This document shows, in pieces, positions 1-54,912 of a stretch of DNA of 64,000 bases. The translations under genes were made by a program, and so were the position numbers. Positions within the stretch are counted from its first letter, which is position 1. The number at the start of each line of letters is the position of its first letter. Source of the stretch: Jannaschia aquimarina (GTDB lineage Bacteria; Pseudomonadota; Alphaproteobacteria; Rhodobacterales; Rhodobacteraceae); the NCBI RefSeq assembly GCF_000877395.1, contig NZ_JYFE01000081.1, positions 1 through 64,000 on the forward strand, given 5' to 3'. Under the pieces are notes generated by a model. The model had not been told where the DNA came from, did no database searches, and worked only from the letters and a program-made list of their open reading frames with translations.

Positions 1-39
1 GCACGGGGGGTGCACGGGGGGTGCACGGGGGGTGCATAC
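1..39. repeat. 11-bp tandem repeat array A (GTGCAC/G6)
   Basis: Three perfect copies of GCACGGGGGGT (period 11) start at the first base and end in GCATACC. The array is probably cut by the window edge. The unit is the palindrome GTGCAC spaced by a run of five or six G on the plus strand. The same unit recurs at 36908-36947 and 54233-54272. It sits about 165 nt upstream of the murJ start, with the G-rich strand in the murJ direction. Function unknown to me; a protein binding once per helical turn or a G-quadruplex are both possible. Confidence 0.9.
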
Positions 40-201: not shown

Positions 202-1776
202 ATGATCAAAGGCTTCCTCACGGTCGGCGGCTGGACCCTGCTTTCGCGCGTGCTGGGGTTCGTCCGCGATATCCTGATCGCCCGCTTCCTCGGCACGGGG
301 GCTGCGGCGGAGGCATTTTTCGTAGCCTTTTCATTGCCCAACATGTTCCGTCGCTTCTTCGCAGAGGGCGCGTTCAACATGGCTTTCGTGCCGCTCTACG
401 CCAAGAAGCTGGAGGCCGACCCGGAGGAAGCCGACGCCTTCGCCCGCGACGCCTTGGCGATGATGGTGCTGGTCCTGACCCTGTTCTCCGTGATCGGGAT
501 CCTGGCCATGCCCGCGCTCGTGCTGGCCATGGCGTCGGGCTTCGCAGGGGACGAACGCTTCGATCTGGCCGTGGCCTACGGGCGCATCGCATTTCCCTAT
601 ATCCTTTTGATTTCGCTGGGCGCGCTCGTGTCGGGGGTGCTGAATTCGAACCGCCGGTTCCTGGCCGCCGCCGCCGCCCCGGCGCTTCTGAACGTGGTCT
701 TCATCGCCGCTATGACGCTGGCCTGGATCGCGCCCGAGGCGGTGCAAACCTGGCTCGCCGTGCCGTCCCTGCCGCGAGCGGTGGGCTGGCTGCTGATCGC
801 TGCCGTCCCATTCGGCGGCCTGGCTCAGCTTGGCCTCGTGGCCTGGGCCGCGCGCCGGGCCGGGCACAGGCTCTGGCCCCGCCGGAGACCCCGCCTCACC
901 CCCGATCTGAAGCGCCTCCTGATCATCGCGGCGCCCGCCCTCTTGGCCAACGGCGTGCTGCAGGTGAACCTGCTCGTCGGACGCCAGGTCGCAAGCCTCG
1001 GAGAGCAGGGAGCGATCGCCTGGCTGTCCTACGCGGACCGGTTGTACCAACTGCCGCTGGGCGTCGTCGGCATCGCCATCGGCATCGTCCTGCTGCCCGA
1101 ACTGTCGCGCAGGATCCGCGCGGAAGACGCCCCCGGCCAGAAGGCCGCCTATTCCCGGGCGGCCGAATTCTCGCTGCTTCTGACGATCCCTGCCATGGTC
1201 GCCTTTCTGGTCGTCCCGATCCCCCTCGTGTCCGTCCTGTTCGAACGCGGCGAGTTCGCTGCGGACGACACGGCGGCAACGGCGCTCGCCCTGATGATCT
1301 ACGCGATCGGCCTCCCGGCTTTCGTGCTGCAAAAGGTGCTGCAGCCTCTGTTCTATGCCCGCGAGGACACGCGCTCCCCTCTTCGCTTCGCGCTGTTCGG
1401 CCTGGTGGCGAATGCCGCAATAGCCATCGGGCTCTTCCCGTTCATCGGCTGGCCCGCTGCCGCCTTCGGCACCACCGTGGCATCCTGGGCGATGCTCCTG
1501 TTGCTCTGGCGAGGGGTGCGCCGGATGGGCGATGTGGGGCGGATCGACGCCCGCGCACGGGGGCGGGTCTGGAGGATCCTGGTCGCTTCGGCGCTTATGG
1601 GCGTGGTCCTGTGGGCCTCGCAATTCGTGCTCGGTCCGACGCTGATCGGGCCTTTGCGGGCGGTCGTGCTGGCGGCGATGGTGGTCGTGGGAATGGGGTC
1701 CTACGCGCTCTTCGCCTTGCTGACAGGCGCGGCCACGCGCGACGACCTGCGCATGATGATCCGCCGTCAGCGCTGA
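202..1776 (+). CDS. murJ: Lipid II flippase MurJ
   Basis: MurJ moves lipid II across the inner membrane for peptidoglycan synthesis. The 524-residue product has the usual family length and is almost entirely hydrophobic segments, as expected for a 14-helix MOP-superfamily protein. The N-terminal block with SRVLGFVRD (residues 15-23) and the following LPNMFRRFFAEGAFN are family signatures. Conserved early arginines (R16, R22) are present. The reading frame stays open upstream to base 10 through repeat array A, so I chose the ATG at 202, where the conserved family sequence begins; no strong ribosome site is visible. Its 3' end overlaps the convergent rhomboid-like gene by 10 nt. Confidence 0.95.
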   Translation: MIKGFLTVGGWTLLSRVLGFVRDILIARFLGTGAAAEAFFVAFSLPNMFRRFFAEGAFNMAFVPLYAKKLEADPEEADAFARDALAMMVLVLTLFSVIGILAMPALVLAMASGFAGDERFDLAVAYGRIAFPYILLISLGALVSGVLNSNRRFLAAAAAPALLNVVFIAAMTLAWIAPEAVQTWLAVPSLPRAVGWLLIAAVPFGGLAQLGLVAWAARRAGHRLWPRRRPRLTPDLKRLLIIAAPALLANGVLQVNLLVGRQVASLGEQGAIAWLSYADRLYQLPLGVVGIAIGIVLLPELSRRIRAEDAPGQKAAYSRAAEFSLLLTIPAMVAFLVVPIPLVSVLFERGEFAADDTAATALALMIYAIGLPAFVLQKVLQPLFYAREDTRSPLRFALFGLVANAAIAIGLFPFIGWPAAAFGTTVASWAMLLLLWRGVRRMGDVGRIDARARGRVWRILVASALMGVVLWASQFVLGPTLIGPLRAVVLAAMVVVGMGSYALFALLTGAATRDDLRMMIRRQR

Positions 1777-35477: not shown

Positions 35478-36881
35478 TCAGGCGTGGATGGCACCGTCCC
35501 CGCAGGCCAGCGCCGCTTCGCGCATGGCCTCGGAATAGGTCGGATGGGCGTGGCAGGTGCGGGCCAGATCCTCGGCCGCTGCTCCGAACTCCATCGCGAC
35601 GCAGACCTCGTGGATCAGGTCACCCGCCATCGGACCGATGACATGGCAGCCCAGGATCCGGTCAGTCTCCTTGTCGGCGATGATCTTGACGAACCCGTCA
35701 GCGGCGAAGTTGGCCTTCGCCCGGCCGTTGCCCATGAAGCTGAACTTGCCGACCTTGTAGGCCCGACCGGACTCCTTGGCCAATTCTTCGGTCAGCCCGA
35801 CACTGGCGACTTCGGGATGCGTGTAGATCACGCCGGGGATGACGTCGTAGTTCACGTGACCCGCCTGCCCGGCGAGGATCTCCGCGACGGCCATGCCCTC
35901 ATCCTCAGCCTTGTGGGCCAGCATCGGTCCCTCGATCGCATCACCGATAGCGCGAATGCCCGCGACACTCGTCTGGTACTCGTCATCGACGGCGATCTGT
36001 CCGCGCTGCGTCGTCTTGACGCCCAACTCCTCAAGGCCCAGCCCATCGGTGAAGGGGCGCCGTCCGGTGGAGACCAGAACGATGTCGGATTTCAGCTCGT
36101 GGGTGCTGTCGTCCTTGCGCAGGGTGTAATGCGTCGTGGCCTTGTTGCCCTTCGTCTCGACCTTCGAGACGGCGGCGCCGGTGACGAATTTCAAGCCTTG
36201 CTTGCCCAGGATCTTCTGGAACTGCTTGGCCACTTCGGCATCCTGCCCGGGTGTGATGGCATCGAGGTATTCGACCACCGTCACCTCCGTCCCCAGCCGG
36301 GTATAGACCGAACCAAGTTCCAACCCGATGACGCCGCCGCCGATCACGGTCATGGTCTTCGGCACCTTCGACAGCTCCAGCGCGCCGGTCGAGGTCACGA
36401 CGATCTTCTCGTCGACCTCGACCTCCGCTCCGGGAACGGGGGCGGAGTCAGAACCCGTCGCGATCACGATATGCTTGGCCTCGTAGGTCGTATCGCCGAC
36501 CTTCACCTTGCCCGCGGCCGGGATGCTGCCCCAGCCCTTGATCCAGTCGACCTTGTTCTTCTTGAACAGGAATTCGATGCCCTTGGTGTTCTGGCCGATG
36601 ACATCGTCCTTGTAGGCGAGCATCTGCTTCCAATCGACGGAGGGGGCCGCGCCCTTCAGACCCATCTTTGCGAAGTTGTGCTCGGCTTCGTGAAGCTGGT
36701 GGCTGGCATGCAGCAGCGCCTTCGACGGGATGCAGCCGATGTTCAGGCAGGTCCCGCCCAGCGTCTCGCGCCCCTCGACGCAGGCCGTCCTGAGCCCCAG
36801 CTGGGCTGCGCGGATGGCGCAGACATAGCCGCCGGGGCCGGAGCCGATGACGATCAGGTCGTAGGATTGGGGGTCGCTCAT
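35478..36881 (-). CDS. lpd: Dihydrolipoyl dehydrogenase (E3)
   Basis: Flavoprotein disulfide reductase that reoxidises lipoyl groups in the 2-oxoacid dehydrogenase and glycine cleavage complexes. 467 residues. The FAD motif [19 protein letters not shown], the redox pair in [19 protein letters not shown] (CxxxxC), the NAD motif [19 protein letters not shown] and the C-terminal [10 protein letters not shown] (His-Glu catalytic pair) are all intact. The frame is open through repeat array B to 36935, but GGAGAGG precedes the ATG at 36881. No E1 or E2 gene is nearby. The repeat array lies 27-66 nt upstream of the start. Confidence 0.97.
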
Positions 36882-36907: not shown

Positions 36908-36947
36908 GTGCACCCCCCGTACACCCCCTGTGCACCGCCCGTGCATA
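36908..36947. repeat. 11-bp tandem repeat array B upstream of lpd
   Basis: On the plus strand the units are GTGCACCCCCC, GTACACCCCCT, GTGCACCGCCC and a final GTGCATA, with an exact period of 11. It lies 27-66 nt before the lpd ATG (minus strand), inside the promoter or 5' leader, with the G-rich strand in the lpd sense direction. The first 27 nt are identical to 54244-54270 in array C. Confidence 0.92.
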
Positions 36948-36981
36948 CGATCTATGTACGAGGCGCCCCGAGGGCCGGGGG

Positions 36982-37377
36982 TCAGATGAGCGTCGAGATA
37001 ACCATTAGGAGCGTGGCCGTGAACCCCGCCATCCAGATGATCGACCGCCAGGGCCGCCACCCGTAGGCATAGGCGGGAACGTAAAGGATACGGGCGGCCA
37101 CGTAGATCCAGGCCAGTCCCCCCGTTATCGCAGTGTACTGGTCAGAGACGACGACCAGCAGGACCGCCGCCGTGAACAGGATCAGACCCTCGAAGTGGTT
37201 GTCCATCGCCCGTCCCAGCCGGGCCGTCCGGTCCGACATCCCGCGCGATGGCTCTCTGTCGCGGGCGGACATCGTGTAGCCGGTGCCGAGTTCCCGGTTG
37301 GCGGGGATCGCGTAGATCACGAACTGGAGCGCCTGGATCAGGATCGCGACGGCGAGGGCGGTGAGTTCTGGGGTCAT
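36982..37377 (-). CDS. MAPEG family membrane protein
   Basis: 131 residues with four hydrophobic segments and the MAPEG core [20 protein letters not shown] and [19 protein letters not shown]. Eukaryotic relatives are glutathione S-transferases and eicosanoid synthases; bacterial roles are mostly undefined. The start overlaps the upstream gene's stop as ATGA. Its 3' end faces repeat array B. Confidence 0.9.
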
Positions 37378-53372: not shown

Positions 53373-53714
53373 ATGAGCGACGAACGCGATGCATTTCTCG
53401 ACGAAGTGGCGGCCCTGAGGCGGGAGATCGCGGTGATGAACCGTCACCGCTTCATCAAGGTGCACAATTCGATGCCCCGTCTCATCCTGTTCCAACTCGC
53501 ACGCGGGTTAGCCTTCGGGTTGGGAACGGTGTTGGGGGCGTCGGTCCTCCTGTCGGTGCTGGCGTGGTCCCTGAGCCAGATCGACTTCATCCCGATCATC
53601 GGCGACTGGGCGCGGGAGATCATCGCGCTCATCCAACCCGAGATCGACGTCGACGTGCGAGTGGAGAGCGACGGCTCGACCACGGTCGAAGGCGACACGA
53701 CGCCAAACGAATGA
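53373..53714 (+). CDS. DUF5665 membrane protein
   Basis: 113 residues. A polar helix (FLDEVAALRREIAVMNRHRF) leads into the DUF5665 core RLILFQLARGLAFGLGTVLG and one hydrophobic span, LGASVLLSVLAWSLSQI, followed by a short acidic tail. Function unknown. It starts 26 nt after trmL, and its stop overlaps the DUF427 gene as ATGA, continuing a compact run of four genes. Confidence 0.88.
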   Translation: MSDERDAFLDEVAALRREIAVMNRHRFIKVHNSMPRLILFQLARGLAFGLGTVLGASVLLSVLAWSLSQIDFIPIIGDWAREIIALIQPEIDVDVRVESDGSTTVEGDTTPNE

Positions 53715-54184
53715 CCGGCCTGCCCGCCGAGAACGTGCAGGACTATCCCCGGCCACCGGCTTTGGAGCGGGTGCCGCAGCGGGTAGAGATCCGGCTGGGC
53801 GGCCAGAAAATTGTCGATACGTCAGAGGCTTGGCGCGTCTGCGAGACGCACCATGCGCCGACTTACTACATCCCGGGCGACGCCATCGGGGCGGAGATCA
53901 CGCAGGCGCGGGGGCGGTCCTTCTGCGAATGGAAGGGGGTCGCGCGGTATTGGTCGCTGGCCGCCGGAGGAACGGTCGCGCCGCGCTGCGCCTGGGACTA
54001 TCCCACTCCGACGAAACGGTTTTCCGCGCTGAAGGATCACTTCGCGATCTACGCTCATGCGATGGATGAATGCCGGGTCGGCGGGGTGCCGGTGACCCCT
54101 CAGCCGGGGGATTTCTACGGCGGCTGGGTGACCCCCAACCTGACCGGAATCGTCAAGGGCGGACCGGGGACCGAAGGCTGGTGA
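53711..54184 (+). CDS. DUF427 domain protein
   Basis: 157 residues. VEIRLGGQKIVDTSEAWRVC, CETHHAPTYYIPGDAI, GRSFCEWKGVARYWSLAAGG and the closing GGWVTPNLTGIVKGGPGTEG are the DUF427 landmarks. The family adopts a small beta-fold; no function is proven. Coupled to the DUF5665 gene. Array C begins 49 nt after its stop. Confidence 0.93.
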   Translation: MTGLPAENVQDYPRPPALERVPQRVEIRLGGQKIVDTSEAWRVCETHHAPTYYIPGDAIGAEITQARGRSFCEWKGVARYWSLAAGGTVAPRCAWDYPTPTKRFSALKDHFAIYAHAMDECRVGGVPVTPQPGDFYGGWVTPNLTGIVKGGPGTEGW

Positions 54185-54232: not shown

Positions 54233-54272
54233 GTGCACCCCCTGTGCACCCCCCGTACACCCCCTGTGCAGA
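54233..54272. repeat. 11-bp tandem repeat array C upstream of hemerythrin gene
   Basis: Plus-strand units GTGCACCCCCT, GTGCACCCCCC, GTACACCCCCT and a final GTGCAGA, exact period 11. The last 27 nt before the final G-A repeat array B exactly. GGTTAACC (54199-54206) lies before it and CGTTAACACTGGTAAACGG after it. It is 95-134 nt upstream of the hemerythrin ATG, here with the C-rich strand in the coding sense, opposite to arrays A and B. Confidence 0.92.
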
Positions 54273-54366
54273 CATGCGGCAGACCTGCGCCTCGTTAACA
54301 CTGGTAAACGGCTCGGCCGCGCCCGATCTACGGGATCGGCCCGATGGACGGGCAGGAGGACGGGCC

Positions 54367-54912
54367 ATGGACGGATCGCTGGATCTCGCGACGCGCGACG
54401 GACTGCCGGAGGCCCTACGCGTCCTGCTGGCCGAGATGCCGCGTTCGGGCTGGCAGGATCATCCGGAATACGGGCCGCTGACGCAGTTCTGGCTGGAGCG
54501 GCACCTCAACTTCCGCCGCTTGCTGGATCTGCTGCAAGGCGATCTCACGGCGCGCGTCGATGGCAAGCTGGATCCGCGCGACCACGCCGCGCGGCTGTCG
54601 CGGCTGGGCGGCATGTTCCTGGGCGAATTGCAGCAGCATCACACGATCGAGGATCAGGTCTACTTCCCCAAGCTTGCCGCCCATGCGCCCGAGCTGGCCC
54701 GGGGGTTCGAGCTGCTGGACGCCGATCATCACGCGCTCCACGAGGAACTGGAGGGCTTTGCCACCGAGGCCAATGCCGTCCTGCGCGGAGAAGCTGCCGC
54801 CCCGCTGGAGGCGCGGGTGGCGCAGATGCACCGCTTCCTCGACCGACACCTGACCGACGAGGAAGAGATCGTCGTCCCGGTGATCCTGAAAGTGGGCGAG
54901 GGTCACCTCTGA
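54367..54912 (+). CDS. Hemerythrin-domain protein
   Basis: 181 residues forming one four-helix bundle. Candidate di-iron ligands: H46 (FWLERHLNF), H91/H92 and E95 (QQHHTIEDQ), H121-H125 (DADHHALHEE), H161 and E165/E166 (DRHLTDEEE). These fit the H...HxxxE...H...HxxxD/E order. Could sense or detoxify oxygen or nitric oxide, or store iron. The frame is open to 54274 directly behind array C, but the ATG at 54367 is preferred (GGGCAGGAGGACGGGCC upstream). Downstream of repeat array C. Confidence 0.88.
   Translation: MDGSLDLATRDGLPEALRVLLAEMPRSGWQDHPEYGPLTQFWLERHLNFRRLLDLLQGDLTARVDGKLDPRDHAARLSRLGGMFLGELQQHHTIEDQVYFPKLAAHAPELARGFELLDADHHALHEELEGFATEANAVLRGEAAAPLEARVAQMHRFLDRHLTDEEEIVVPVILKVGEGHL

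What the first reader, a model, noticed from the sequence alone, without database searches (positions are those of the whole stretch)
36908..36947. Dispersed 11-bp GTGCAC/C-run arrays: one copy sits in the lpd leader
Three arrays with exactly 11-bp period occur in this window (1-39, 36908-36947, 54233-54272). The unit is a GTGCAC palindrome spaced by five or six C (or G). An 11-bp period puts each palindrome on the same DNA face. Arrays B and C share 27 identical bases (36908-36934 and 54244-54270) though 17 kb apart, with unrelated genes beside them. This one lies 27-66 nt before lpd. I know of no regulator or element with this description, so a shared regulator or structural role is inference.
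Basis: partly seen in the sequence, partly recalled or inferred. Interest (0 to 1): 0.75.

Follow-up and report, generated by a model that had tools for sequence, protein, structure and literature searches.

The report
Chromosome-wide repeat sites with matching protein
These bacteria carry dozens of short repeat arrays at fixed, well-spaced places on the chromosome; the repeat "spelling" changes between species, and so do the matching amino acids of a small DNA-binding protein encoded beside one array, so the arrays are probably its binding sites, with a job on the chromosome that is still unknown.

Summary
The three window arrays belong to a family of 57 in this Jannaschia-like genome (reversed pattern: none). 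The unit is GTRCACCCCCY (f1); the GTGCAC palindrome is only its commonest form here. Other Jannaschia species fill shared places, in the same polarity, with other 11-bp units: GTGATCYRCGG (f2), GTGTTACGGCT (f3). The lpd leader holds f1, f2 or f3 by species, or a hairpin. In five genomes no two arrays are closer than 9.58 kb (0 gaps under 9.5 kb, 18.5 expected). In 14 genomes of five genera one array lies just upstream of a gene for a small ribbon-helix-helix (BrnA-like) protein whose putative DNA-contact triplet follows the unit: R-T-R with f1 (10 of 10), K-S-Y/W with f2 (3 of 3), H-T-R with f3 (1 of 1). The arrays are probably binding sites of this protein, arranged like ParR on parC but scattered round the chromosome. 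Binding is not shown; a chromosome-organising role is inferred. It is neither an lpd-specific element nor a neutral microsatellite.

The parts
1..39 (-). Array A (f1, C-rich strand is minus): units 37-27, 26-16, 15-5, cut by contig start; murJ leader
   Evidence: same place holds f2 arrays in G015 (L392) and G016 (L308)
202..1776 (+). murJ, gene next to array A
   Evidence: Pfam MurJ
36908..36940 (+). Array B, three 11-bp f1 units (GTGCACCCCCC GTACACCCCCT GTGCACCGCCC, the third with one departure)
36941..36949 (+). terminal unit GTGCATACG of array B (gives polarity)
35478..36881 (-). lpd; start codon 26 nt from array B
36982..37377 (-). MAPEG-family gene; its stop lies on the other side of array B
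54233..54265 (+). Array C, three 11-bp f1 units; no shared place found in other genomes
54266..54273 (+). terminal unit GTGCAGAC of array C
53711..54184 (+). DUF427 (NTP_transf_9) gene upstream of array C
54367..54912 (+). hemerythrin-domain gene downstream of array C

Best explanation
Each array is a polar double-stranded DNA site for a small ribbon-helix-helix (RHH) protein of the BrnA-antitoxin fold family. In this genome the gene lies outside the window, on contig C6 (L032:2718-3131). RHH dimers occupy successive 11-bp units, about one helical turn each, and build a nucleoprotein stack that starts or ends at the terminal unit. One array lies in front of the protein's own gene, so it is probably autoregulated. 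Up to tens of further copies sit in intergenic gaps round the chromosome, kept in place and about 10 kb or more apart, which points to a chromosome-scale role (domain boundary, anchoring or segregation) rather than control of single genes. Shown: arrays, places, polarity, spacing, gene linkage, covariation of putative contact residues. Inferred: binding, stacking, autoregulation, chromosome role. My odds: arrays are read by this protein 0.8; chromosome-scale role 0.45.
For: Places: 40 linked groups of arrays span at least two Jannaschia genomes and 18 of them hold more than one unit family. Of 80 cross-family pairs, 78 keep polarity, 0 are inverted, 2 sit at the other gene end (no pair gave mixed signals, and at 60% identity it is 64 of 65). 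lpd place read in 17 genomes. Families f2 and f3 recur in their genomes with reversed-pattern control 0 in Jannaschia. Protein: an RHH gene lies downstream of an array in 14 genomes, in differing neighbourhoods; 10 of the 14 were scanned and 9 pass the Pfam BrnA_antitoxin cut-off. Contact triplet R-T-R f1 10/10, K-S-[YW] f2 3/3, H-T-R f3 1/1, although the Leisingera and Roseovarius proteins are only 30% identical to a Nioella one. Spacing: 0 gaps under 9.5 kb, 18.5 expected, five genomes; without G000 and with contig lengths as fetched, 0 against 12.1. G008 alone gap CV 0.68 against 0.96, P 0.008. Identified neighbour genes share no function. ParR, also RHH, needs 11-bp direct repeats in plasmid R1 (passage).
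Against: No binding was measured. All loci with the RHH gene were fetched because they hold an array, so RHH genes without arrays would be missed. None of the fetched arrays of G008 (37) and G017 (8) has this gene in its locus. J. helgolandensis (G001) and J. pohangensis (G006) carry f1 and f2 arrays but only an f1-type RHH was seen. f3 rests on one protein. Other columns of the protein also separate f1 from f2 (17 in all), so the triplet is not the only difference. Six of 20 Jannaschia show neither f1, f2 nor f3. The AlphaFold monomer model is poor (pLDDT 49). The spacing could come from selection against recombination between close repeats; in G006, G015 and G011 taken singly it is not significant, and one exception exists outside Jannaschia (L157, two arrays about 2.3 kb apart). 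No ter depletion or strong replication-arm pattern.
Confidence: 0.6

Rival explanations
1. The arrays are ordinary operators of a global transcription regulator (RHH or an OmpR/PhoB-type regulator such as ArcA, whose sites are often three to five direct repeats 11 bp apart), controlling the genes beside them.
For: 11-bp direct repeats are the ArcA architecture (passages). At rpsB the array sits just upstream of the likely promoter (by eye). One array precedes the putative binder gene.
Against: Identified neighbour genes have no common function. Arrays are rarer in divergent (promoter-only) regions: 26 of 214 against 192 of 708 other intergenic regions. Where the upstream gene runs the same way, the median distance from its stop codon is 28 nt in the named set. 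The spacing has no reason in a regulon.
Confidence: 0.2
2. The arrays are transcription punctuation (roadblock or terminator-like elements) between genes.
For: Convergent regions are enriched: 62 of 214 against 92 of 708. At the lpd place the 7 of 17 genomes without an array have a GC hairpin instead (judged by eye, weaker in G007, G009, G010).
Against: At most about 60 sites per genome; both orientations in tandem genes (18 against 14 in G000); at lpd only 26 nt separate array and start, leaving little room for a promoter; spacing unexplained.
Confidence: 0.1
3. They are REP-like or MITE-like selfish repeats spread by a transposase, with target immunity explaining the spacing.
For: Repeat family, 56 of 57 intergenic in G000, patchy between species; in G000 some arrays adjoin longer repeats.
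Against: RAYT (PF01797) has no match in G000, G005 and G008. Orthologous places and polarity are kept while units are replaced, which copying to new places does not explain. Few relics: in 906 kb only three hits with 3 mismatches lie away from arrays, two of them about 100 bp from an array.
Confidence: 0.06
4. Neutral tandem-repeat (minisatellite) DNA.
For: Exact short tandem repeats, variable unit number.
Against: Shared places across species and genera, genome-wide unit identity, kept polarity, gene linkage with covarying protein.
Confidence: 0.01

Closest known systems
ParR-parC plasmid partition (R1 type)
   Same: RHH protein; direct repeats of 11 bp (R1); repeats beside the gene of the complex; partner-specific dialects between plasmids (passages).
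   Different: Here the sites are scattered round the chromosome, no ParM-like gene was seen beside the RHH gene, and the protein matches BrnA in Pfam.
BrnT-BrnA toxin-antitoxin
   Same: RHH core matches Pfam BrnA_antitoxin; BrnAT binds its own promoter (review passages).
   Different: No BrnT was found among called neighbours; the gene stands alone behind an array; many dispersed sites. In G005 an unrelated HigB-type pair lies on the opposite strand about 335 nt away.
Noc and SlmA nucleoid-occlusion sites
   Same: About 70 and 24-52 dispersed chromosomal sites for one DNA-binding protein (passages).
   Different: Those sites are palindromic and under-represented near the terminus; here direct repeats, with 30 of 54 arrays in the origin half (origin placed by parB).
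ArcA multi-repeat sites
   Same: Three to five direct repeats at 11-bp spacing in most sites (passages).
   Different: ArcA sites serve a regulon; unit sequence differs; no regulon recognised here.
Neisseria DNA-uptake-sequence dialects (recalled)
   Same: Genome-wide short motif with species dialects.
   Different: Tens, not thousands, of sites; tandem arrays; linked DNA-binding gene.

Membership tests
ParR-parC | RHH DNA-binding protein encoded next to the repeats | tested here: met
   14 genomes, (fold by Pfam only; structure model too poor)
ParR-parC | direct repeats near 10-11 bp | tested here: met
   R1 11-bp and pB171 10-bp repeats
ParR-parC | ParM-type ATPase in the same operon | tested here: not met
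   12 of 14 loci inspected by own gene caller; 10 neighbours scanned in Pfam, none ParM-like
BrnT-BrnA | BrnA RHH domain | tested here: met
   9 of 10 proteins scanned are above the Pfam cut-off, the tenth (G015) below it
BrnT-BrnA | toxin gene brnT directly upstream | tested here: not met
   array and non-coding DNA upstream; no such gene called in 12 loci, none in 10 neighbours scanned
Noc/SlmA | palindromic sites depleted around ter | tested here: not met
   direct repeats; 30 of 54 arrays of G008 and G015 in origin half
Noc/SlmA | inhibits division over nucleoid | not testable with these tools
   needs microscopy
MraZ boxes (recalled: 10-bp spaced repeats before mraZ) | repeats in front of mraZ | tested here: not met
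   no f1 array in the 260 nt upstream of mraZ of G000
REP/RAYT | TnpA-REP (PF01797) in the genome | tested here: not met
   0 matches in G000, G005, G008; 6 of 30 genomes have one, among them G006 (below cut-off) and G012
Rfam RNA element | match to a curated RNA family | tested here: not met
   only a tRNA in the window at gathering scores
ArcA/OmpR direct-repeat operators | common regulon of target genes | tested here: not met
   unrelated neighbours among those identified
Neutral microsatellite | positions not conserved between relatives | tested here: not met

The most novel reading that the evidence does not exclude
A domesticated antitoxin-like RHH protein with tens of chromosomal centromere-like arrays forms a previously unknown chromosome-organising or segregation system in Rhodobacteraceae, in which protein and sites have switched recognition code together at fixed genomic addresses at least twice within one genus.
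Probability: 0.35. Interest if true: 0.92.

Novelty: new variant of a known kind. Interest (0 to 1): 0.85.

Why it matters
If right, it is a chromosome-scale protein-site system with several natural recognition codes in one genus. That makes it possible to test directly how one protein and dozens of unlinked sites change code together, a hard problem in regulatory evolution. It also names a protein and three residues to test.

Tried and rejected
G-quadruplex: rejected, because f2 and f3 units have no long G runs yet hold the same places. RNA element: rejected, because either strand can be sense and Rfam gives nothing. MraZ, RAYT. ParB copy number did not track array presence. Replication polarity: 38 of 54 co-directional with the fork, P 0.004 against one half but 0.13 against 0.6; moving the presumed origin by 75-150 kb lowers it to 34-35 of 54; so only suggestive. 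Plasmid and phage DNA searches with two arrays found nothing, but BLAST's low-complexity filter may hide arrays, so this is inconclusive; the exact-pattern scan of viral contigs gave 1 stretch. Relatives of one RHH protein (Nioella): none in phages, six partial BrnA matches in plasmids. Solved structures by sequence: no credible match. AlphaFold monomer model pLDDT 49, not used. rpsB tree: only two starred forks, so family history is open. First gene calls put lpd on the wrong strand and were replaced. A fourth 11-bp unit at the lpd place of G013 is one example only. The periodicity script took wrong stop codons for G006, G012, G013 and G017, so the lpd place is judged. Literature: the string GTGCACCCCC gave 9 papers, by titles and abstracts unrelated; some searches were seen as listings (no paper) and none named these arrays; passages only were read from PMC3798270, PMC4060949, PMC4726725, PMC5086665, PMC9426499. 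That the arrays are undescribed rests on these searches alone.

Full report
OBSERVATION. The unit is GTRCACCCCCY (called f1 here); GTGCAC is its commonest form in this genome. The genome (G000, 4.10 Mb, 81 contigs) has 97 pattern hits, none for the reversed pattern, forming 57 arrays. They are nearly all-or-none: a scan for two units with up to 4 mismatches in 906 kb (window plus fetched regions of G000, G005, G008) gives 9 hits away from arrays against 35 for the reversed control; the 2 in G000, with 3 mismatches, lie about 100 bp from arrays. Most arrays end on one side in a distinct unit (GTCTGCAC, GTGCAGAC or GTGCATACG), so they are polar.

DISTRIBUTION. Of 60 genomes searched around ours, 8 (own included), all of one genus, have f1 arrays; of 394 genomes drawn from the family 13 have a hit (own included), 9 of them at least two, while the reversed control hits 7 genomes once each. 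A scan of named genomes stopped at its limit with 113 stretches; the 80 titles shown are Jannaschia, Nioella, Leisingera, Gemmobacter, Roseovarius, Planktomarina, Cypionkella, Heliomarina, Tateyamaria, Sulfitobacter or 'Rhodobacteraceae bacterium'. The window genome is by kinship a Jannaschia relative: its same-genus genome G005 has the contig lengths of Jannaschia sp. LMIT008.

POSITION. With a home-made gene caller, 56 of 57 arrays of G000 are intergenic although 84% of the DNA read is coding. Over four sets, array-bearing intergenic regions are tandem 126, convergent 62, divergent 26; other intergenic regions of 60 nt or more are 424, 92, 192 (the named set contains near relatives and the species behind G001, G005, G006, so counts are not independent; in G000 itself convergent is not enriched, 4 against 5 divergent). 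The neighbour genes that I identified have no common function: lpd, murJ, rpsB, rpsL, thrS, rbfA, citramalate synthase, exonuclease III, chorismate mutase, AFG1-type ATPase, P450, transporters.

Arrays of G000 (57 of 57), G005 (40 of 57, counted) and G008 (37 of 37) were compared by their flanking genes. 18 of the 37 G008 arrays share a place with a G000 array; with about 1,800 intergenic regions per genome (159 of 60 nt or more in 296 kb) roughly one would be expected by chance (my estimate). Some places are shared with other genera (Cypionkella, Planktomarina, Nioella, Leisingera).

UNIT TURNOVER. Reading the rpsB leader in 22 genomes showed different 11-bp arrays at the same place in G011 and G015. 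This second unit (f2, GTGATCYRCGG on the matching strand) occurs in seven Jannaschia genomes (2 to 20 hits each, reversed control 0), once in another genus inside a gene, and not in G000, G005, G008. A third (f3, GTGTTACGGCT) occurs only in G012 and G017 of 60 genomes (7 and 11 hits). At the lpd place 17 genomes were read: f1 in 2, f2 in 5 (G003's imperfect), f3 in 2, one possible fourth unit, and a GC hairpin without array in 7 (judged by eye). The comparison used 225 arrays of 12 genomes: all strict f1 arrays of G000, G001, G003, G006, G008 and 40 of 57 of G005; all f2 arrays of G003, G011, G015, G016 and part of those of G001, G004, G006; all f3 arrays. 40 linked groups span two or more genomes and 18 hold more than one family; the largest group joins at least two physical places because the RHH gene described below has moved, and one group lies inside an apparent gene. 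Of 80 cross-family pairs 78 agree in polarity, none is inverted, 2 lie at the other end of the gene; within f1 56 agree, 3 are inverted, 4 lie at the other end. No pair gave mixed signals, and a 60% identity limit gives 64 of 65. The strand chosen for f2 and f3 was fixed after the first matches, one choice per family. Pairs within a group are not independent.

SPACING. In G000, G005, G008, G006 (f1 and f2 together) and G015 no two arrays on a contig are closer than 9,580 bp: 0 gaps under 9.5 kb against 18.5 expected for random placement. G000 contigs tend to end at arrays, which biases it, and some contig lengths in that call were estimates or assigned. Repeated without G000, on contigs of known length and with G011 added, it is 0 against 12.1; singly G005 P 0.0045, G008 P 0.018, G006 P 0.055, G015 and G011 not significant. 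In the 3.25-Mb G008 contig the gap CV is 0.68 against 0.96 (P 0.008). Counter-example: L157 of another genus has two arrays about 2.3 kb apart.

THE PROTEIN. One place stood out: its downstream gene (G000 L032:2718-3131) matches BrnA_antitoxin and is less conserved (34-61% to the relatives found) than most other shared neighbours. Relatives lie downstream of an array, same polarity, in 14 genomes: Jannaschia G000, G005, G001, G006 (f1), G015, G011, G004 (f2), G012 (f3), three Nioella, Planktomarina, Leisingera, Roseovarius (f1). In the 12 loci inspected the gene neighbourhood is shared by only a few (G000 with G005, G015 with G004), while the array is always there. The strand of the RHH fold, whose alternate residues touch bases (recalled from known RHH proteins), reads R-T-R in 10 of 10 f1 proteins, K-S-Y or K-S-W in 3 of 3 f2 proteins, H-T-R in the f3 protein; 17 columns in all separate f1 from f2. 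No fetched array locus of G008 (37) or G017 (8) has this gene, and all loci were chosen for having arrays, so its presence elsewhere is untested. A sequence search of solved structures and an AlphaFold monomer model did not help.

MECHANISM. The parsimonious reading is that the arrays are the sites of this protein, one dimer per 11 bp, as ParR of plasmid R1 needs at least two 11-bp repeats (passage read). The array before its own gene suggests autoregulation. Kept, spaced sites beside unrelated genes suggest a chromosome-scale task; which one is open. The sites are not depleted in the presumed terminus half (30 of 54 in the origin half) and polarity follows the fork in 38 of 54 (origin placed by parB), unlike Noc or SlmA sites, which are under-represented near Ter.

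VERDICT. Real, unexpected and testable. I file it under no known family: ParR-parC, BrnTA, Noc/SlmA, MraZ, REP and ArcA-type operators each fail a tested feature. It works most like ParR on parC, spread over a chromosome.

Noticed in passing
G000 contig ends (C12, C13, C20, C22, C27, C32, C33, C41, C42, C55, C72, C73, C78, C81): 14 of 57 arrays lie within 150 bp of a contig end (counted), so the assembly breaks there; in many the terminal-unit side abuts longer repeats (GC hairpin GATCGGACGGGGC..GCCCCGTCCGATC).
   Followed up: partly
L335 (G006) and L378 (G017): An f2 and an f3 array lie at the same place inside an apparent open reading frame, i.e. possibly in-frame repeats in a protein.
   Followed up: no
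L032, L428, L331, L362 upstream of the RHH gene: A TTAA-N7-TTAA-like pair (CtrA-like, consensus recalled) about 60-68 nt before the start, between array and gene, in 4 of 8 Jannaschia loci as an exact-spaced pair starting with TTAA; could mean cell-cycle control.
   Followed up: partly
L338 / L444 (G013), lpd leader: Possible fourth 11-bp unit, GTAT-N7, three copies.
   Followed up: no
L157 (QVQC01000050.1): Two f1 arrays about 2.3 kb apart, the only exception seen to wide spacing.
   Followed up: no
L234:4944-5482 (G005): HigB-type toxin gene with a helix-turn-helix gene, opposite strand, about 335 nt beyond the RHH gene.
   Followed up: no
named-set loci such as L092, L100, L175: The array is preceded by an A-run and GGGGGGTG, which could pair with the first unit; on the other strand this looks like a terminator hairpin with T-run.
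   Followed up: no
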